From a virus, in the IMG/VR virus record IMGVR_UViG_3300023179_000070, positions 18,053 to 82,052 of that record: 64,000 bases of DNA, one strand, 5' to 3'. Numbering within the stretch: position 1 is the first letter of the stretch; each line of letters begins with the position of its first letter. The position numbers were made by a program, and so were the translations under genes. The notes under the pieces were generated by a model that had not been told where the DNA came from, did not search any database, and was given only the letters and a program-made list of their open reading frames with translations. Below, piece after piece: positions 21,546 to 56,227 of the stretch.

Positions 21546-21551
21546 GTGTAA
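21546..21551 (+). promoter_or_regulatory. Class B GTGTAA box
   Basis: GTGTAA lies 15 nt upstream of ATG 21561, followed by TATTAATAT. The same box and spacing precede the 14-codon relic at 50630. Confidence 0.6.
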
Positions 21552-21560
21552 TATTAATAT

Positions 21561-22220
21561 ATGCCATGCGCTTTAACATCTAATACAGATTATCCAGGTT
21601 ATATTAAGGCGATCCTTAAGGAAATCGATGCTGGAAATGATGAAACATTAAAAGCTTGTGCTTGCTCTCTTAAAACTCCAGTAACAGATGAAGGATGTCC
21701 TATTCTTGATGAAGATGGTAAAGTTGGAGCCTTTCCATTTTGTTGGACACAAAGTGATATTAGTGGGGTTGGAGCTAATACACGCTGGCCAGTAGGTGTG
21801 AGTTTAAAGCAAGCTATGAACTTATATTGGAATACTTTAGGATTTAGCATAAAAACTAATCCACCTCCTAGATGTGCAGGAATAGGTCCTGGATGCGCTG
21901 ATATTTTAAATATAGGAGCAAAAGGAATAGATCGAGGCCTTCCAGAAGGTTTTGCTAAAAAAGAATTAGTATGTTTTCATCCATTACTACTTTTATCTAG
22001 TTCAACATCTAGTAGTGTATGTAGTTATAGCTTTCATGTTGAAGACCCTTGGCCATTTGGATGGATTTATTATCCATATGATGTGCAGAAAATAGTTAAA
22101 CAAGGCGACAATTATACATTTTACCCTTGCGCAGGTGATTTTTCATTTAACTGGAGCTACGGTTGCCAAGATTTTTGGAGCATGAATATAGAGAACGAAG
22201 GATCTTTAAAATTTACTTAA
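21561..22220 (+). CDS. Cys-rich protein, paralogue of the gene at 52809-53633
   Basis: 219 aa. The N-terminal 90 residues match the 274-aa protein at 52809-53633 at most positions, with shared ACxLKTP, DEGCPILDEDGKVGAFPFC, GVGxNT and SLKQAM. The C-terminal halves differ. There is no signal peptide or membrane helix. The family is not recognised. The late-type GTGTAA box suggests a virion-associated or late role. A third, broken copy of the first 12 codons lies at 50586-50630. Confidence 0.65.
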   Translation: MPCALTSNTDYPGYIKAILKEIDAGNDETLKACACSLKTPVTDEGCPILDEDGKVGAFPFCWTQSDISGVGANTRWPVGVSLKQAMNLYWNTLGFSIKTNPPPRCAGIGPGCADILNIGAKGIDRGLPEGFAKKELVCFHPLLLLSSSTSSSVCSYSFHVEDPWPFGWIYYPYDVQKIVKQGDNYTFYPCAGDFSFNWSYGCQDFWSMNIENEGSLKFT

Positions 22221-26656: not shown

Positions 26657-27649
26657 TTATTTTTTCCAAAAAGAGTACATATTTTTATCTATTTCATAAT
26701 TCATATATTCTACTTTTTTATTTGGAAATTGAATATAATATTGGTACATTTCAGTTATAAGTTTTTCTAAATCGGTATTATCTTCAAATTTTAGTAAATC
26801 TTTAGCTTTTTGATGATCGCAGAATGCATGCACAACTTCTCTTCTTTTTTCAAGAAAAACAATTTTTGATTTATCAAAACCGAATTTTCTTCCAACATTT
26901 AAAACTAATTCGGCTCCATCTTTTATGGTAATTGGTGAATCTGATCCAATATTGAAAAAATGATCATCATAATTAGTTAGTAATTTTTCTATTGGATCAC
27001 ATAAAAATTGGCAATCAGAAAAAGCTCTAGTTTGTAATCCATCTCCAAAGATAGTAATATCTTCGCCAAGTGAAGCTTGTCTAATCCAAATTGCTATTGC
27101 ATTTCTATATTTATCCCAATAGTTTTGATATTTTGATACTACATTATGAGGCAATATTGTTGAGTACTTTAATCCGAAATGCTCATAGGCTTCTTTTAGA
27201 TCCATTTCAATTGCTAATTTTGCTATTCCATATGGATCTTTTGGATTTCTTGTGTCGCTTTCCTTGAATGGAGGGTTACCATCCCCATAAGTTGCAAAGC
27301 TAGAAAAATTAATTAATTTTTTAACATTATGATTTATACAAGCATTTATAATGTTAATTGAGCCTACGAGATTATTCTCATAGTTATATTTTCTAATAAA
27401 AGGGCTTAAAATTTCTGCTGCATAAGCTGCGCAATGTATCACATAGTCTGGTTTTTCTATTTCAAATATTTTATTAATCGAATTAGAATCACAAATATCA
27501 TTTAAATAAAATTTAATATTATCTGGTAGATTTTCCTTAAATCCTCCACTTAAATTATCTAAAGAGATAACATTATATTTTTTATCTAAAAAATATCTGG
27601 ATAAAACACTACCAATCATTCCAGCTCCACCAGTTATTAATATTTTCAT
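26657..27649 (-). CDS. NAD-dependent epimerase/dehydratase, GalE-like
   Basis: 330 aa. NAD site LITGGAGMIGSVLSRYF, a SSFATYGDG segment with the active Ser/Thr, and DPYGIAKLA with the Tyr-Lys pair. The C-terminal half (FGDGLQTRAFSDCQFLCDPI, FFNIGSDSPITI) is a sugar-nucleotide binding pocket of the UDP-hexose 4-epimerase type. The exact substrate cannot be assigned. It overlaps the methyltransferase-like gene by 4 nt. Confidence 0.78.
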   Translation of the reverse strand: MKILITGGAGMIGSVLSRYFLDKKYNVISLDNLSGGFKENLPDNIKFYLNDICDSNSINKIFEIEKPDYVIHCAAYAAEILSPFIRKYNYENNLVGSINIINACINHNVKKLINFSSFATYGDGNPPFKESDTRNPKDPYGIAKLAIEMDLKEAYEHFGLKYSTILPHNVVSKYQNYWDKYRNAIAIWIRQASLGEDITIFGDGLQTRAFSDCQFLCDPIEKLLTNYDDHFFNIGSDSPITIKDGAELVLNVGRKFGFDKSKIVFLEKRREVVHAFCDHQKAKDLLKFEDNTDLEKLITEMYQYYIQFPNKKVEYMNYEIDKNMYSFWKK

Positions 27650-35109: not shown

Positions 35110-35174
35110 ATAAAATTATATATAATATAAATATAATTGTCTAATAAAAATGCAGACACAGGGATTCGTTTACT

Positions 35175-35562
35175 TGGACCCGAGAGGAATTGAACCTCTG
35201 TCTTTTAAAAATCTAAATTAAAATACTACAAGTTTAGTTCTTTTTGTTTTTAGCTTTATATAGATAAAGAACAAACATACTTAGCGATTTTATTTTTAAT
35301 ACTTAATATTAATAGAATAAAAAAACTATTAATAATAAGACATCTAATTCCGCAACTATCCAATAGATGTGTCAAGGTAGTCACGCTGTAGAACTTAGGC
35401 TACAGAAGCGGTCATCTCAACAAGAGGAACTCTTGCAGAGATATGACCTTTATATTTTGCTGTTTTGGCAGTTAATATAATTGAAACTTTTTAAGGAGTC
35501 CTCGATTCAACCTCCACTTGCATTTCAATTTATTTTCTTAAAATCGAAACCAGTACGGGCCC
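35175..35562 (-). ncRNA. ssrA: Transfer-messenger RNA (tmRNA)
   Basis: 388 nt. The 5' end GGGCCCG (35562-35556) pairs with CGGGTCC (35182-35176), including the G3-U70 wobble that marks alanyl-tRNA and tmRNA; the discriminator is A (35175). A 5-bp T arm with a TTCAATT loop lies at 35199-35183. The usual 5' motif TACTGGTTTCGA is at 35555-35544. The tag frame runs 35469-35398, starting AKTAKYKG and ending MTASVA, then TAA at 35397-35395. CCA is not encoded. It rescues stalled ribosomes and tags unfinished proteins. Confidence 0.88.
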
Positions 35563-44285: not shown

Positions 44286-44879
44286 ATGAATATAAATATA
44301 GACGATAATACTTTAGTAAGAAATATACAAGAAAAAAATGATGAAGAATCATTAAAAATGCTTATAAATAAACATTCTGCACTTTGTAATTCTTTGTATA
44401 AAAAATACTCAAATCCTATGGTTACATCTGGAGTTCACGTACAAGATGTAATAGATCAAAAAGATTATATTGTATACAAATCTGCAATGTCTTTTGATCC
44501 TTGTAAAAATTCCAAATTCTCAACTTGGTTGTACAATCAAGTAAGATATCAATGCCTTAATTGCATGAATGAGAATAGTCATTATTTGACACTTGAAACT
44601 GATAAATTAAACTATTTAATAGAAAAAAATACTACTCCACAAAAAGAATATAAAAATATTAATGAATATATTTTTAATATCATAGAGTCATGCTCCGATA
44701 AAAGAGTAGAAAAAATATTCAAAATGAGATATTTAAATAATACAAATAAAAAAATGTCTTGGAATAAGATAGCTAAAAAATTAAAGATTAGTACTCAAAC
44801 TGCTATCAATATTCATAATAAAGCTATCAAACTATTAAAAACGAAAGTTGAGAGTAAAAATTCTTTTGACAAAATATAA
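44286..44879 (+). CDS. Sigma-70-family RNA polymerase sigma factor
   Basis: 197 aa. Region 2 is near residues 70-100 (MSFDPCKNSKFSTWLYNQVRYQ), with the F-STWLY block of group IV sigmas. Region 4 is a helix-turn-helix near residues 155-185 (SWNKIAKKLKISTQTAINIHNKAIKLL). It is small, as are phage late factors such as T4 gp55. It is the best candidate in the window to recognise the GTGTAA class B box. No anti-sigma gene is adjacent. Confidence 0.75.
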   Translation: MNINIDDNTLVRNIQEKNDEESLKMLINKHSALCNSLYKKYSNPMVTSGVHVQDVIDQKDYIVYKSAMSFDPCKNSKFSTWLYNQVRYQCLNCMNENSHYLTLETDKLNYLIEKNTTPQKEYKNINEYIFNIIESCSDKRVEKIFKMRYLNNTNKKMSWNKIAKKLKISTQTAINIHNKAIKLLKTKVESKNSFDKI

Positions 44880-48983: not shown

Positions 48984-50048
48984 ATGAAAACAGTTTTAAA
49001 CTTTAAAAATATAGACAGTACTAAACAGCCATTATTTCTTGGTGAAGATTTGAATCTTCAAAGATATGATCGTTTTAAATATCCTATATTTTTTGAATTA
49101 TTCAAAAAACAAAATGAAAATTTCTGGTGGCCTCATGAAATAGCTTTAGGAAAAGATCGTAGTGATTATAAAAACTTAACTGATACAGAAAGATTTGTAT
49201 TTGATAGTAATTTACGGTTCCAAACTCTTGGAGATAGTATGCTTTCTAGAAGTATTCATTCTCTTAAAGATTATGTAAGTAATCCAGAACTTGAAATTTG
49301 TATGAATACTTGGGCACAATTTGAGGGTATTCATAGTTATTCTTATTCTTATCTTTTAAATAATGTTTATCCAGATGCCACTAAATTCTTTGATAGTATT
49401 ATGGAAGATAAAGAGATTACAAGTCGCGCCGAATTGATTAGAAATAATTTTGATAAGATTCTCGGTGATGACGAAAAGAAAGATCCTAAACAAAAGATTT
49501 TTGATGCAATTCTTTCTATTAATGTAATGGAAGGTCTTGTATTTTATGTTTCTTTTGCTTGTTCTTTTTATTTTGGTTACAGAGGTAAGATGGAAGGTAA
49601 TTCTAAAATTATTAAATTTATTCAAAGAGATGAAGCATTACATTTTGCAGTTAGCCAAAATTTACTTAAAATTTTAAAAGAGGAAGATAAAGAAGGATTT
49701 ACTAGTATAGTTAAAAAAAGTGAAGATAAGATATACGCTTTTTATGAACAAGCAGCTAAAAATGAAAGTGAATGGTCTAAATATTTATTTAGTAGAGGTA
49801 GTCTGCTAGGTTTAAATGCAGAAGTATTAGATGGTTATTCTAAATGGCTATGTGATTCTAGGCTAAGAAGTCTTGGATATAAGAAGATTTTTAATCAAAA
49901 AGATAATCCTATATCTGGATGGTTAGATAGCTATCTAGATAGCAGTAAAGTGCAGGTAGCACCTCAAGAAACAGAGATATCTAGTTATAAAGTTGGAGCA
50001 AGGAAAACTGATATATCTGATGATGATTTTGGCGATTTAAAGTTATAA
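48984..50048 (+). CDS. nrdB: Ribonucleoside-diphosphate reductase, class I beta subunit
   Basis: 354 aa. Diiron ligands: EGIHSYSY (Glu, His and radical Tyr), then IQRDEALHFAVSQ (Glu and His). The first Glu-containing helix is NENFWWPHEIALGKD. The protein ends DDDFGDLKL, the beta-subunit tail that binds alpha. It makes the tyrosyl radical. It is 3 nt downstream of nrdA and convergent with the gene at 50043. Confidence 0.93.
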   Translation: MKTVLNFKNIDSTKQPLFLGEDLNLQRYDRFKYPIFFELFKKQNENFWWPHEIALGKDRSDYKNLTDTERFVFDSNLRFQTLGDSMLSRSIHSLKDYVSNPELEICMNTWAQFEGIHSYSYSYLLNNVYPDATKFFDSIMEDKEITSRAELIRNNFDKILGDDEKKDPKQKIFDAILSINVMEGLVFYVSFACSFYFGYRGKMEGNSKIIKFIQRDEALHFAVSQNLLKILKEEDKEGFTSIVKKSEDKIYAFYEQAAKNESEWSKYLFSRGSLLGLNAEVLDGYSKWLCDSRLRSLGYKKIFNQKDNPISGWLDSYLDSSKVQVAPQETEISSYKVGARKTDISDDDFGDLKL

Positions 50049-50531
50049 ATTAAAATTATAAACTGGTTCTTTCATAAGTGGATATTCTATTGTAAATCCT
50101 TTACTTTTTATTTTCTTTTCTAAACTTAAAGGTCTTCCAAGGTTTGTTTTAAAAGCGCAAATGCATTTTTTATTATTAAATCCATCTATAATTAAATCCA
50201 TATATTGTCCATATTCTTTTTTTAATTTATGCTCGTCTCTTAAAGATATACAATTTTTATTTTTTAAACATCCTACATTTACTGAATAAAGCCCTTTTGA
50301 TCCTAAACCTATATTTAAATTTAATTTAAAATCTATTTTTAAATTAGGATAGATTTTTAAAATTTCATTTTTAATAATATCTTCTTTGTTTTGTGGGCAT
50401 ACAATATCTAAATCGTTCCATCCAGTATCTGTTAAATATCCATTTAATATAAATTCTCTTACGTATCCACCAGCAATATAACCATCGTTATTAAAAATAA
50501 TATTTAAAATAAAATTATGATCAAAATACAT
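50043..50531 (-). CDS. Mini nucleotidyltransferase, paralogue A
   Basis: 162 aa. A minimal nucleotidyltransferase head: YIAGGYVREFIL (GG and VRE) near residue 17, then GWNDLDIVCPQN near residue 38, with D-x-D. This is the CCA-adding or poly(A)-polymerase head pattern without an RNA-binding domain. It is paired upstream with a 14-codon relic of the Cys-rich gene, as its paralogue at 52375 is paired with the intact gene. A tRNA-modifying, antitoxin-like or regulatory role is possible. Confidence 0.6.
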   Translation of the reverse strand: MYFDHNFILNIIFNNDGYIAGGYVREFILNGYLTDTGWNDLDIVCPQNKEDIIKNEILKIYPNLKIDFKLNLNIGLGSKGLYSVNVGCLKNKNCISLRDEHKLKKEYGQYMDLIIDGFNNKKCICAFKTNLGRPLSLEKKIKSKGFTIEYPLMKEPVYNFNL

Positions 50532-50585
50532 CTTATTAAGATAAAATTACTATCCATTTTGAAACTAAGAACGCTAGTGCCACAA

Positions 50586-50630
50586 TCATAACCAAGGATA
50601 ATCTGTATTAGATGTTAGAGCGCATGGCAT
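50586..50630 (-). pseudogene. Relic of the Cys-rich gene (14 codons)
   Basis: ATG at 50630, TGA at 50588-50586; the frame reads MPCALTSNTDYPWL. The first 12 codons are identical to those of the gene at 21561 (MPCALTSNTDYP), and a GTGTAT box lies 15 nt upstream. After that the copy stops and does not resemble the full gene. It is a copy of the start and promoter of the 21561 gene left next to paralogue A of the nucleotidyltransferase. Confidence 0.75.
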
Positions 50631-50658
50631 ATATAATATATACACCCTTTTCAAATAA

Positions 50659-50664
50659 GTGTAA
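50659..50664 (+). promoter_or_regulatory. Class B GTGTAA box
   Basis: GTGTAA lies 14 nt upstream of GTG 50673. Confidence 0.6.
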
Positions 50665-50672
50665 TTATATAC

Positions 50673-51005
50673 GTGAATTTAGATATTACATTATTATTTA
50701 ATATAGTTTTAGGATCATTATCCTTTTTAGGTGGATGGTTATTTACTAGAGTATTTTCACTATTTGATAAACAAGAAAAATTAGTTAAAGATATTAATGA
50801 TAAGACTTTTAGTGATTTTATTACTTTAAGAAAAGAAATGGAATTAGAAGGAAGAAAACATCAACAAGAAATAGCAGATTTAGCATTAAAAATAAGTACA
50901 ACTTACGTTACTAAAGAATCTTTTGATGATTATTTTGATAGAATAGAACAAAAATTAGATCGCAATTTTGATATAATACAGCAACATTTAATAAATAAAA
51001 AATAA
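50673..51005 (+). CDS. Small membrane-anchored coiled-coil protein
   Basis: 110 aa from a GTG at 50673. One membrane helix at residues 5-28 (LLFNIVLGSLSFLGGWLFTRVF), then a charged coiled coil (KLVKDINDKTFSDFITLRKEM, then DRIEQKLDRNFDII). The layout is that of small phage lysis-associated or virion-associated membrane proteins such as spanin-like or holin-like ones. The class B box supports the GTG start. Confidence 0.55.
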   Translation: MNLDITLLFNIVLGSLSFLGGWLFTRVFSLFDKQEKLVKDINDKTFSDFITLRKEMELEGRKHQQEIADLALKISTTYVTKESFDDYFDRIEQKLDRNFDIIQQHLINKK

Positions 51006-51007
51006 TC

Positions 51008-51036
51008 TTTACATTATTTTAATATATCAGTATTAT
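51008..51036 (+). promoter_or_regulatory. Class A promoter for the purA-like gene
   Basis: TTTACA (51008-51013), 17-bp spacer, TATTAT (51031-51036), then 7 nt to ATG 51044. Confidence 0.62.
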
Positions 51037-51043
51037 ACTACTG

Positions 51044-52036
51044 ATGGTTAATCATATAGATATTATATTTGGTTTAGCTTGGGGAGACGAAGGAAAGGGC
51101 AAAATAAGTAATGCTATTAGCAAAAATTATGATATTATTTGTCGTTGGAATGGTGGGCCAAATGCAGGTCATACAGTCTATATTAATGATAAAAAATATA
51201 AAACTCATATTATTCCTTGTGGAGTATTTCAAAATAAGCTTAGCATCATTGGTCCAAATTGTGTTATCAATATTGATAAATTTTTTGATGAAATAGATTA
51301 TCTTAAAAGAGAAGGATTTGATACTTCTTTAATTAAAGTAAGTCCAAAAGCACATATTATTACTGAAAGACATATTCAATATGATCTTAAATTTTTAAAA
51401 CCAAAATTAGGTACAACTGGACAGGGAATTGCACCAGCATATGCAGATAAAGCCCTAAGAATAGGTAAATTAGCAGGAAATTATTTAGATAAACAATATA
51501 TTTGGAATGGCGAACTCTATGGTAATATTCTATGTGAAGGCGCACAAAGTTTTTGGTTAGATTTAAATTATGGAGATTATCCTTATGTTACAAGTAGTGA
51601 AACTTTGCCTTATTCTGCTTGTTCATTAGGTTTTAGTCCTAAAAAAATTAGAGATATTATTGGTGTAGCTAAAATTTATGATACAAAAAGTGGAGTAGAT
51701 CCATTATTTCCAGAATCACTTTGGCAAGATGATGAATTAAATATGCTAATAGAAATTGGTCAAGAGTTTGGTTCTACAACTGGTAGAAAAAGGATAGTTA
51801 ATTGGCTAAATTTAAATAAACTAATAGACGCAATTAAAATTTCTGGAGTCAATAAATTAATAATAAATAAATGCGATATTCTTGAAAAAATACATACTTA
51901 TAAATTATTCCAAAATAATAATCTTTATAAATTTAACACATTACAAGCAATGGAATCTTTTATAAGATCTCAAATAAATCACATATTAAATGAGTATATT
52001 GAAATAATTTTCTCTGGAAATAAATCTTTAATTTAA
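51044..52036 (+). CDS. Adenylosuccinate synthetase-like (PurA/PurZ0-like)
   Basis: 330 aa, about 100 residues shorter than PurA of cells. WGDEGKGK near residue 12 keeps the catalytic Asp (PurZ of Z-genome phages has Ser here). NAGHTVYI is the IMP-site His loop; GTTGQGIAPAYADKA the IMP loop; CEGAQSFWLDLNYGDYPYVTSS and FGSTTGRKRIVNWL the GTP-side loops. It would make adenylosuccinate from IMP, aspartate and GTP. The shortening and the variant STRVG-like loop (DTKSGVD) are unusual, so a change of substrate toward dGMP cannot be excluded. Confidence 0.82.
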   Translation: MVNHIDIIFGLAWGDEGKGKISNAISKNYDIICRWNGGPNAGHTVYINDKKYKTHIIPCGVFQNKLSIIGPNCVINIDKFFDEIDYLKREGFDTSLIKVSPKAHIITERHIQYDLKFLKPKLGTTGQGIAPAYADKALRIGKLAGNYLDKQYIWNGELYGNILCEGAQSFWLDLNYGDYPYVTSSETLPYSACSLGFSPKKIRDIIGVAKIYDTKSGVDPLFPESLWQDDELNMLIEIGQEFGSTTGRKRIVNWLNLNKLIDAIKISGVNKLIINKCDILEKIHTYKLFQNNNLYKFNTLQAMESFIRSQINHILNEYIEIIFSGNKSLI

Positions 52037-52038
52037 TA

Positions 52039-52044
52039 GTGTAA
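52039..52044 (+). promoter_or_regulatory. Class B GTGTAA box
   Basis: GTGTAA lies 14 nt upstream of GTG 52053. Confidence 0.58.
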
Positions 52045-52052
52045 ACTATTAC

Positions 52053-52268
52053 GTGAGTAATCTAAGCGAAGCATTGGCTATTTGTTCTGAATTTGCAGAT
52101 GAATATGGTATAGATTCTAAAGATAATAACAAAATTATAGTTTATATGAAAAGTGAATATATTAATGAATTAAAGAAAATGCTTGAAAATAAAAATTATA
52201 AATTAAAATCATTTCAAGTATATGGTGATGAAGCAATAGTTTATTTTATTCCAAAAAAGAGAAAATAA
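52053..52268 (+). CDS. Small hypothetical protein
   Basis: 71 aa from a GTG at 52053, set by the class B box. A short helix-beta pattern (SEALAICSEFADEYGI, then KIIVYMKSEYINELKKML) and a basic end (IPKKRK). Not recognised. Confidence 0.48.
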   Translation: MSNLSEALAICSEFADEYGIDSKDNNKIIVYMKSEYINELKKMLENKNYKLKSFQVYGDEAIVYFIPKKRK

Positions 52269-52269
52269 G

Positions 52270-52341
52270 AGCCAGAAATCGGATTCGAACCGATGACCTA
52301 CGGTTTACAAAACCGTTGCACTACCGCTGTGCTATTCTGGC
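52270..52341 (-). tRNA. tRNA-Thr (UGU)
   Basis: 72 nt. Acceptor GCCAGAA (52341-52335) with TTCTGGC (52277-52271), D stem GCAC/GTGC, anticodon stem ACGGT/ACCGT with loop TTTGTAA (anticodon at 52309-52307), T arm ATCGG/CCGAT with loop TTCGAAT. The discriminator is U rather than the usual A. CCA is not encoded. Decodes ACA, common in AT-rich genes. Confidence 0.9.
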
Positions 52342-52374
52342 TTATTTTTATTATATCTAATATATGATAGATAA

Positions 52375-52809
52375 TCAATTTTTAAATGATAAATAAGGAA
52401 ATTCAATTGTCCAGCCAGTACTTATTAATAATTTTTCACGATCTAACTTTCTTCCGATATGCCTTTTTCTTAAATATATACAAATTTTATTTTTAGCCAA
52501 ATCCACATAATTTTTTTCATCACCAAAATATTCTACAGTTTTAAATTGTCCATCATATTGTAATAAATCACAAGAATATGGACTTTTATATCCAGTAAAT
52601 TTGTTAGGTCTAAAATCTAAAATTATATTTGGATATAAACTATGAATTTCTTTTGCTATTTTTTCTTCAGAATCTAGCGGGCATTTTATATCTATGTCTT
52701 TCCAATTATTATCTGAAGGACTACCATTCCATATCCATTCTCTAACATATCCACCAATTATAATACCATTATTTTTAATAATAGTATTTATTATAAAATT
52801 ATGATCCAT
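52375..52809 (-). CDS. Mini nucleotidyltransferase, paralogue B
   Basis: 144 aa. Same head as paralogue A: IIGGYVREWIWNG near residue 18, then NWKDIDIKCPLD with D-x-D near 38. C-terminal ends differ, with a basic stretch (YLRKRHIGRKLDREKL). Its start overlaps the stop of the Cys-rich gene by one base (TAATG), so they are coupled. tRNA-Thr is 33 nt downstream of its stop. Confidence 0.6.
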   Translation of the reverse strand: MDHNFIINTIIKNNGIIIGGYVREWIWNGSPSDNNWKDIDIKCPLDSEEKIAKEIHSLYPNIILDFRPNKFTGYKSPYSCDLLQYDGQFKTVEYFGDEKNYVDLAKNKICIYLRKRHIGRKLDREKLLISTGWTIEFPYLSFKN

Positions 52810-53633
52810 TAAATAAATTCTAATTTAGAAATTGTACTAGCACCAGAATGCCTACAACTAGGAGTATCTGCAAAGATTTTTGAATAAAATTTTAATGGAG
52901 CTGCTGTTGATTGACCTAAAATTTTTACATTAACACTAAATTCACCATTATCTCTCCATCCAGATGCTCCACCATCACAACCCGCAGCGCCATTAGTAGT
53001 TGTTGATGTACATACACCATATGCACTCATAGCAGTAAAAGTAAATCTTGGATAAAAATAATAAACGTCTCCTTCTTTTTTCATTTTCATTTTAATAGAA
53101 GGCGCAAACATATCAGCAATTACTTGATCTTCACTAACTCCTGTCAATTCTATTCCATTACCAAGATGAGTTTTCGTAAGAATATCAACAGTATATGTAA
53201 AAACGGCAGGACACATTAAAAATCTCTTTTCTATAGGTTCACAAGTTAAAATATTATTTTGTGATATATATGTACATCTCTTTTTTTGAAAAAATTTGCT
53301 AACTGTACCAGTACCACAAGAACTAGTATCAGAAACTATTCCAGAAAATAACCAAGTCCAGGTTTGCCAGTATAACTGCATAGCTTGTTTTAATGAAAGT
53401 TTTAAAGGATATTCTGTATTATCTCCAACCCCATCTGCTTCTAAATTGCAACAAAATGGGAAAGCCCCCACCTTGCCATCCTCATCAAGAATAGGACAAC
53501 CTTCATCATTAGTTGGAGTTTTAAGACCACAAGCACAAGTTTTAAATGCATCATCATTTCCAGAATATACTTGAATCAATATTGTTTTAAGATAATCTGG
53601 ATAATAAGCTGAAAGTAGAGTACCACATGCCAT
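52809..53633 (-). CDS. Cys-rich protein, paralogue of the gene at 21561
   Basis: 274 aa. The N-terminal 90 residues (YPDYLKTILIQVYSGNDDAFK to DEGCPILDEDGKVGAFPFC) match the 219-aa protein at 21561. The C-terminal two thirds are different, Cys-rich and beta-like. GTGTAA lies 17 nt upstream of ATG 53633. The gene and the nucleotidyltransferase downstream form a cassette. Function unknown. Confidence 0.62.
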   Translation of the reverse strand: MACGTLLSAYYPDYLKTILIQVYSGNDDAFKTCACGLKTPTNDEGCPILDEDGKVGAFPFCCNLEADGVGDNTEYPLKLSLKQAMQLYWQTWTWLFSGIVSDTSSCGTGTVSKFFQKKRCTYISQNNILTCEPIEKRFLMCPAVFTYTVDILTKTHLGNGIELTGVSEDQVIADMFAPSIKMKMKKEGDVYYFYPRFTFTAMSAYGVCTSTTTNGAAGCDGGASGWRDNGEFSVNVKILGQSTAAPLKFYSKIFADTPSCRHSGASTISKLEFI

Positions 53634-53650
53634 ATGTATTAAATTTACAC

Positions 53651-55003: not shown

Positions 55004-56227
55004 TTAATTTCTTTTTTTGGTAGTTAATTTTCCAGTTCCACCACTTTTTATTATATTATCAGACCAAAGAATTACAGATTTTCCAGCTAAAGTTGAACCC
55101 CAGCCAGTAACAAAATTCTTCTTACGATAAAATCTTAAATTTGCAGGAGTATTTTGAAAAGAATTTGATTGAACAGAAGGGGCATTTCCAAAAAAATTAA
55201 TTCTAGTTAAACTTGTACAATTATTAAACGCAAATCCACCAAGTGTTAATAAATTTTTAGGAAGGGTTATGTTAGTCAATTTTGAACATGATTCAAAAAA
55301 TCTATTACCTAAAGACGTTATTCCATCTGGAATATTAATTTCTTTTAAATTACTACAACCTTGAAAGCAGTTATTTCCCATACTTACTAAGTTTTTAGGT
55401 AAACTTATACTAATTAAATTTGTACAACTTTGAAAAGCTATGTCAGATATAGCTAGAACAGTTTCTGGCACAATAAAATTATTTTGCGGTTTATTTGCTA
55501 AGTATTGAATCAAAGTAGTTATATTTTTATTATATATTACATTATCAATTGAGGAATAAGATGGATTTAAAGGATCAATTATAATAGTAGTTAAACTTGC
55601 GCATCCTTGAAAAGGTGCAGAACCGATAGTTGTAACGCTTGCTGGAATTGTTATACTAGTTAAATTTGTAAAACTAAAAGCTGAAGCTCCAATTGTAGTT
55701 AATGTATTTGGTAAAGATATACTATTTATTGGCGTACGAGTAAAAGCACCTGCCTCAATTATTGTTAAATTATTACTTAGAGTAATATTAGATAAAGTAG
55801 AACAAAGTTGAAATGCTTGACCATTAATAATCGTCAGACTATTCGGAAGAACAATATTATTTAATTGAACGCACCCATAAAAAGCCGAAAATCCAATTGA
55901 ATTTAAACTATTCCCAAATGATATCGTTGTTAAATTACAAGATTCAAAAGCATTATCTTCAATGATAGTGACTCCATTTCCAATCGTAGCCGTAGTTAAA
56001 CGACCACATTGACTAAAAGCCGAAATTCCAATAGAAGTAACATTATCTGGGATGATAATGTTAGATAATGCAGTAAAAGCGAAACAAAAAGATTCAATTC
56101 GAGTTACGGTATTGCCTATTGATACGCCAGTTAATATTTTACCAGAAACTCTACTACTGGAAGTAAGAACCGTATCCGAACTTATACTTGTAGTTCCATC
56201 ATTATAATAAAAAATTGTATCTGCCAT
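55004..56227 (-). CDS. BspA-like leucine-rich-repeat protein
   Basis: 407 aa. Residues 45-375 are about 14 repeats of 22-24 residues with the BspA/LRR_5 pattern (SIGISAFSQCGRL, TTATIGNGVT, NIVLPNSLTI). No signal peptide. The N-terminus begins MADTIFYYNDGTTSISS, and MADT also starts the 492-aa virion-like protein. The tail is basic. LRR proteins bind proteins or glycans. With the class B box this could be a virion or fibre protein that contacts the host. Confidence 0.78.
   Translation of the reverse strand: MADTIFYYNDGTTSISSDTVLTSSSRVSGKILTGVSIGNTVTRIESFCFAFTALSNIIIPDNVTSIGISAFSQCGRLTTATIGNGVTIIEDNAFESCNLTTISFGNSLNSIGFSAFYGCVQLNNIVLPNSLTIINGQAFQLCSTLSNITLSNNLTIIEAGAFTRTPINSISLPNTLTTIGASAFSFTNLTSITIPASVTTIGSAPFQGCASLTTIIIDPLNPSYSSIDNVIYNKNITTLIQYLANKPQNNFIVPETVLAISDIAFQSCTNLISISLPKNLVSMGNNCFQGCSNLKEINIPDGITSLGNRFFESCSKLTNITLPKNLLTLGGFAFNNCTSLTRINFFGNAPSVQSNSFQNTPANLRFYRKKNFVTGWGSTLAGKSVILWSDNIIKSGGTGKLTTKKRN

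What the first reader, a model, noticed from the sequence alone, without database searches (positions are those of the whole stretch)
50043..53633. Duplicated cassette: Cys-rich gene plus mini nucleotidyltransferase, one copy decayed
At 52375-53633 an intact Cys-rich gene is coupled to nucleotidyltransferase B. At 50043-50630 nucleotidyltransferase A has upstream only a 14-codon relic of a Cys-rich gene, still with its GTGTAT box. The relic is closest to the third copy at 21561, 29 kb away, not to its neighbour, so exchange between copies has occurred. This looks like an unknown two-gene system under duplication and decay.
Basis: partly seen in the sequence, partly recalled or inferred. Interest (0 to 1): 0.75.

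Follow-up and report, generated by a model that had tools for sequence, protein, structure and literature searches.

The report
Phage polymorphic Cys-rich/nucleotidyltransferase gene cassettes
A group of related uncultured phages carries many copies of a gene with a constant front half and an ever-changing back half, often paired with its own small nucleotidyltransferase, and copies the constant front half between genes; the window holds one intact pair, one solo gene and one decayed pair.

Summary
cysB–ntB (52375-53633), ntA (50043-50531), the 14-codon relic (50586-50630) and cysC (21561-22220) are all real; the relic/cysC match is far beyond chance. They are not one duplicated cassette. They belong to a dispersed, multi-copy, phage-specific gene family: 11 related viral contigs, 25 full-length or nearly full-length Cys genes, 12 NT genes and several decayed copies. 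Copies sit in a few intergenic sites that are empty in sister phages, antisense to the neighbouring genes, and nearly all follow a GTGTA[AT] promoter-like box. The first ~60 codons are homogenised inside a genome (up to ~185 nt identical), then similarity falls to background. The hypervariable C-terminal part is co-inherited with its NT (Mantel r=0.90), the N-terminal part is not (r=0.02). NT is a probable active mini-nucleotidyltransferase (CCA-adding-enzyme-like fold, all three motifs, dN/dS 0.1-0.4). The Cys protein is predicted confidently (pLDDT 90.7) but matches no PDB or BFVD fold. Best guess: late, virion-associated recognition or delivery proteins (conserved docking domain, variable business end), with the NT as cognate partner enzyme. 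The function is inferred, not shown.

The parts
52809..53633 (-). cysB: intact type-I Cys-rich gene (274 aa): N-domain residues 1-61, LKQAM.LYW segment to ~92, then a hypervariable beta-rich part
52375..52809 (-). ntB: cognate mini-nucleotidyltransferase type I (144 aa), overlaps the cysB stop (TAATG)
53645..53650 (-). GTGTAA promoter-like box of cysB
50043..50531 (-). ntA: orphan mini-nucleotidyltransferase type I (162 aa), its stop overlapping the nrdB 3' end
50586..50630 (-). relic: first 12 matching codons of a Cys gene plus 2 and a stop (14-codon ORF)
50640..50645 (-). GTGTAT box of the relic
21561..22220 (+). cysC: solo Cys-rich gene (219 aa), no NT, between a DnaB-like helicase gene and an 86-93 aa gene, antisense to both
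21546..21551 (+). GTGTAA box of cysC
44286..44879 (+). phage sigma factor, candidate to read the box (inference)

Best explanation
A polymorphic 'constant front, variable back' gene family of one lineage of tailed phages. SHOWN: (1) most copies are independent units with their own promoter-like box, placed antisense in gaps between replication and metabolism genes; (2) codons 1 to ~35-62 are exchanged between copies of one genome, while the downstream part plus NT, when present, is inherited as a block; (3) copies stand beside decayed older ones, which have lost sequence by deletion, truncation or loss of the start codon. INFERRED: the units are expressed late by a phage sigma factor. The conserved N-domain docks the protein to the virion (packaged or displayed). 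The C-terminal beta-rich part recognises or acts on a changing host target. The NT transfers a nucleotide onto the cognate protein or that same target. The relic is the front module of one such unit that lost the Cys gene but kept box and NT.
For: Pairs recur. Front module: the four full-length G007 copies are identical for 105-185 nt from the ATG, apart from at most single mismatches, then fall to background; G003 neighbours share 165 nt. Cys C-part vs NT distance: Mantel r=0.90, p=5e-5 (n=10); N-part vs NT r=0.02, p=0.40. Box 13-18 nt upstream of 90 genes vs 1.1 expected, 24 of them Cys genes; it also starts the tail operon that ends in a PF10145 tape-measure gene. Opposite strand to the nearest core gene in 47/53 cases, vs 41/471 for core-core neighbours. 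dN/dS (NG86) of NT ~0.1-0.4, of Cys C-part ~0.26-0.76, and dN of the C-part 2-6 times that of NT in every pair compared. NT fold model pLDDT 83.8, best Foldseek hits A-adding/CC-adding enzymes (prob 0.97, E 0.014). Cys model pLDDT 90.7, pTM 0.88, no fold match. No signal peptide or membrane segment evident by reading.
Against: No virion proteomics. No identifiable capsid or baseplate docking partner. N-domain carries no consistent T4-type L-x-E prohead cleavage site. The box also precedes nrdB and other genes, so 'late' is not established. No major capsid gene was identified for comparison (PF07068 search uninformative, its controls did not ring). Co-inheritance of adjacent genes can reflect linkage alone.
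Confidence: 0.42

Rival explanations
1. Toxin-like effector with a cognate neutraliser: the variable C-part (or the NT) is toxic, and the partner next door neutralises it, as in polymorphic toxins or MNT-type toxin-antitoxin pairs.
For: Variable C-terminus, cognate downstream gene, orphan partner genes (ntA; G007 NT with its own box). Polymorphic toxins recombine C-terminal cassettes (PMC3482391).
Against: About 14 of 24 full Cys genes lack an NT of their own. NT order is not fixed (G001 NT precedes Cys). NT keeps all catalytic motifs under purifying selection, which an immunity protein would not need. No toxin domain found. The Cys fold is not HEPN.
Confidence: 0.18
2. Receptor-binding or adhesin family with a dedicated assembly helper: conserved N-part attaches to the virion, variable C-part binds host glycans, NT is a fold used as chaperone.
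For: Same co-inheritance pattern as tail-fibre tip plus helper; rapid C-part evolution.
Against: NT keeps hG[GS], [DE]h[DE]h and the third acidic motif. Genes are scattered among metabolic genes, not in the tail cluster. No trimeric-fibre features.
Confidence: 0.15
3. Intracellular accessory genes (morons) of late infection, such as superinfection exclusion or counter-defence, not in the virion.
For: Own promoter-like box, antisense insertions, empty sites in relatives.
Against: Does not explain a strictly conserved N-domain on variable C-parts as well as a docking domain does.
Confidence: 0.2
4. Ordinary old duplication with decay and chance similarity of the relic.
For: ntA/ntB are paralogues.
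Against: Relic E 9e-16, 34/35 nt with cysC; same pattern in independent phages.
Confidence: 0.03

Closest known systems
T4 internal proteins (IPI, IPII, IPIII and T-even relatives)
   Same: Short conserved targeting N-terminus on highly diverse C-terminal parts, believed shaped by host defence (PMC3012670).
   Different: Here the conserved part is a ~61-residue Cys-containing domain, not a short cleaved capsid-targeting sequence; there are up to 7 copies in many sites and a paired NT gene; packaging is not shown.
Polymorphic toxin systems
   Same: Constant N-part, exchangeable C-part, cognate adjacent gene, solitary partner genes (PMC3482391).
   Different: No secretion or toxin domain found; partner gene often absent; partner is an apparent enzyme.
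NTase-fold enzymes: class II CCA-adding/poly(A) polymerase head domain, MNT and AbiEii-type proteins
   Same: hG[GS] + [DE]h[DE]h motifs; Foldseek best hits 3wfp/3wfq tRNA A-adding/CC-adding enzyme.
   Different: Single ~145-residue domain with no tRNA-binding body; no significant Pfam or PDB sequence match; partner is not HEPN.
Tail-fibre tip plus tail-fibre assembly gene cassettes
   Same: C-terminal specificity part travels with a small downstream gene.
   Different: Not in a tail operon, no fibre sequence features, partner is an NTase fold. (Analogy from general knowledge.)

Membership tests
NTase-fold superfamily | hG[GS] motif | tested here: met
   G19 invariant, G/S next, in all 11 aligned
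NTase-fold superfamily | [DE]h[DE]h motif | tested here: met
   DIDI/DLDI/DVDV in type I; ELDI/EVDI in type II
NTase-fold superfamily | third catalytic acid (h[DE]h) | tested here: met
   LDF/IDF in type I; IDI or RID in type II by inspection, exact type II position uncertain
NTase-fold superfamily | alpha/beta NTase fold | tested here: inconclusive
   best hits are NTases at prob 0.91-0.97 but E 0.012-0.02, TMq 0.42-0.46
Class II tRNA nucleotidyltransferase | neck, body and tail domains | tested here: not met
   protein ends at 144-162 aa
MNT-HEPN toxin-antitoxin | HEPN partner | tested here: not met
   partner predicted beta-rich, no Pfam match
T4 internal proteins | conserved N-terminal targeting segment on variable proteins | tested here: inconclusive
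   conserved N-domain met; targeting role untested
T4 internal proteins | L-x-E cleavage by prohead protease after the targeting segment | tested here: not met
   LKE not conserved: LIQ, LKT, LKK, LKN in copies (by inspection)
T4 internal proteins | presence inside virions | not testable with these tools
   no proteomics
Polymorphic toxins | constant N-part with exchangeable C-part | tested here: met
Polymorphic toxins | known secretion or trafficking domain | tested here: not met
   no Pfam or PHROG family for cysB/cysC; no significant PHROG match among 23 members
Polymorphic toxins | toxicity neutralised by adjacent gene | not testable with these tools
   needs experiment

The most novel reading that the evidence does not exclude
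A phage-encoded antigenic-variation-like system: a dispersed library of late, virion-associated proteins of a new fold whose constant front modules are homogenised by recombination so that whole C-part/NT blocks can be swapped, with dedicated nucleotidyltransferases that modify the cognate protein or its host target.
Probability: 0.2. Interest if true: 0.88.

Novelty: new variant of a known kind. Interest (0 to 1): 0.64.

Why it matters
Multi-copy, front-homogenised, back-variable gene families are familiar from pathogen surface antigens and polymorphic toxins, but I found no described phage case paired with a cognate mini-nucleotidyltransferase (limited literature search). If the C-parts meet host defences or receptors, the family records that arms race in uncultured phages and offers a new protein fold and small nucleotidyltransferases with an unknown substrate.

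Tried and rejected
Pfam, PHROGs, PDB sequence and INPHARED searches gave no family for either protein beyond a weak PHROG nucleotidyltransferase hit. One scan of GTDB genome contigs found no relative. A DNA-pattern scan for the box plus start gave 106 stretches, but Cys/NT homologues only in contigs already known. A 3' Cys remnant between relic and ntA was sought and not found. The gp23 capsid search was uninformative because its controls did not ring. Cysteine co-variation was weak and confounded by kinship. Foldseek of the Cys model found nothing above TM ~0.2. A chance explanation of the relic was rejected.

Full report
WHAT IS THERE. cysB (52809-53633, minus) is followed by ntB (52375-52809) with a TAATG stop/start overlap. 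ntA (50043-50531, minus) ends inside the nrdB 3' end. Upstream of ntA is a 14-codon ORF (50586-50630) whose first 12 codons and 15 bp upstream match cysC (21561, plus) at 91.5% over 59 bp, E 9e-16 in the window. Over codons 1-12 the relic has 34 of 35 nt in common with cysC; no other of 25 copies exceeds 28. The box-plus-start pattern occurs three times in the window and never in shuffles.

IT IS A DISPERSED FAMILY. The window belongs to an 82-kb IMG/VR virus record. Related viral contigs carry the same genes. Searching the whole records gives 25 full-length or nearly full-length Cys genes in 11 contigs, up to 7 in one (G002), and 12 full-length NT genes, counting the locus shared by G003 and G004 once. 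No homologue was found in INPHARED phages, and one scan of GTDB genome contigs found none. Core genes around the copies are conserved and syntenic: G000 and G001 align over 70 kb at 93% mean identity, yet at the cysB site the Cys and NT proteins are only 41% and 64% identical.

SITES AND ORIENTATION. Copies sit in a few intergenic gaps: helicase/86-93 aa gene, nrdB 3' end, the 71-aa/70-aa gene gap, the purA neighbourhood, and the guaB-like gene neighbourhood. The nrdB gap that holds ntA in G000 is 30 bp in G001 and also lacks a cassette in G004, G006 and G008, and holds a different Cys gene in G002. Cys genes lie on the strand opposite to the nearest core gene in 47 of 53 flanks, versus 41 of 471 core-core neighbours; the six exceptions all adjoin one membrane-protein gene, which bears the same box in all three of those genomes.

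THE BOX. GTGTA[AT] lies 13-18 nt before the start of 90 genes in 11 contigs, 1.1 expected; 24 are Cys genes. That distance leaves room for little or no 5' leader if the box acts as a -10-like element (inference). It also begins the operon that leads to the PF10145 tape-measure gene, but also precedes nrdB, so 'late' is likely rather than shown. The window encodes a sigma factor (44286-44879).

MOSAIC STRUCTURE. The four full-length G007 copies share 105-185 nt from the ATG, identical apart from at most single mismatches, with different end points, then drop to background identity; upstream similarity stops at or near the ATG. In G003 a neighbour pair shares 165 nt. Synonymous differences are rarer within genomes than between them (codons 16-32: 19% of identical residues use a different codon within genomes, 39% between), which argues for recombination or conversion, not only protein selection. 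Assembly error is an alternative for any single contig, but G003 and G004, assembled from different metagenomes, show the same arrangement.

PAIRING. Among 10 Cys-NT pairs, distances of the Cys C-part and of NT agree (r=0.90, p=5e-5; r=0.90, p=5.5e-4 within seven type-I pairs), while the Cys N-part does not (r=0.02 and -0.14). Type-II NT (GGF..., ELDI) always goes with type-II Cys (LSYKDAM, WIDK..LIYP) in G001, G006 and G008. Linkage alone could cause this, but the equally linked N-part does not show it. About 14 of 24 full Cys genes have no NT of their own, and ntA and one G007 NT are orphans, the latter with its own box. A third, shortened NT-like frame with GGFVRD..NDIDI lies beside a truncated Cys gene in G004.

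DECAY. Besides the window relic: a G001 copy with lost start codon, frameshift and fusion to an NT 3' end (CGGWTIKFPYL), next to an intact pair; a G003/G004 copy with ATG changed to ATA but an otherwise open frame; and a G004 copy truncated at 124 aa. So the relic is one case of a general birth-and-death process. No Cys 3' end is detectable before ntA.

PROTEINS. NT: dN/dS ~0.1-0.4 against ~0.26-0.76 for the Cys C-part, dN of the C-part being 2-6 times higher in every pair compared. AlphaFold model pLDDT 83.8, with large spread between the five models; best fold hits are A-adding/CC-adding tRNA enzymes (prob 0.97, E 0.014). The three catalytic motifs are kept. Cys protein: six cysteines invariant or nearly so (C3, C33, C35, C46, C61, C141), model pLDDT 90.7, pTM 0.88, three N-terminal helices followed by a beta-rich part, no match in PDB or BFVD.

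MECHANISM. Shown: modular mosaic family, box, antisense placement, co-inheritance, decay. Inferred: late expression, virion docking by the N-domain, target-facing C-part, nucleotide transfer by NT. [quoted passage not shown] the nearest in genetics is polymorphic toxins (PMC3482391). Membership in either is not claimed: the T4 cleavage motif and any toxin or trafficking domain were looked for and not found.

Noticed in passing
window 35174-35562 (-): A tmRNA gene in a phage genome (Rfam RF00023, 105 bits; tag AKTAKYKGHISARVPLVEMTASVA).
   Followed up: partly
genome-wide, e.g. window 21546, 50645, 53650: GTGTA[AT] box 13-18 nt upstream of 90 genes in 11 related phage contigs, 1.1 expected: a phage promoter class with almost no leader.
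   Followed up: yes
window 55004-56227 (-): BspA-type leucine-rich repeat protein, boxed and antisense like the Cys genes; other LRR genes with the box occur in G002 and G008, so several accessory families share this lifestyle.
   Followed up: partly
L005 8452-10635 (-): GDP-mannose dehydratase-like gene of 727 aa against 381 aa in L063: an in-frame insert starting at Cys and ending HN-S, apparently an intein.
   Followed up: no
G003/G004 (L088 14905-15570): Cys copy with start codon ATG changed to ATA but the rest of the frame open: a silent copy or a fresh pseudogene.
   Followed up: partly
L200 / G004 26829-27098 (+): Third, shortened nucleotidyltransferase-like frame (GGFVRDYL..NDIDI) converging on a truncated Cys gene.
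   Followed up: partly
L004 7240-8487 and L009 1901-2623: Two other unrelated Cys-rich boxed genes near the cassettes.
   Followed up: no
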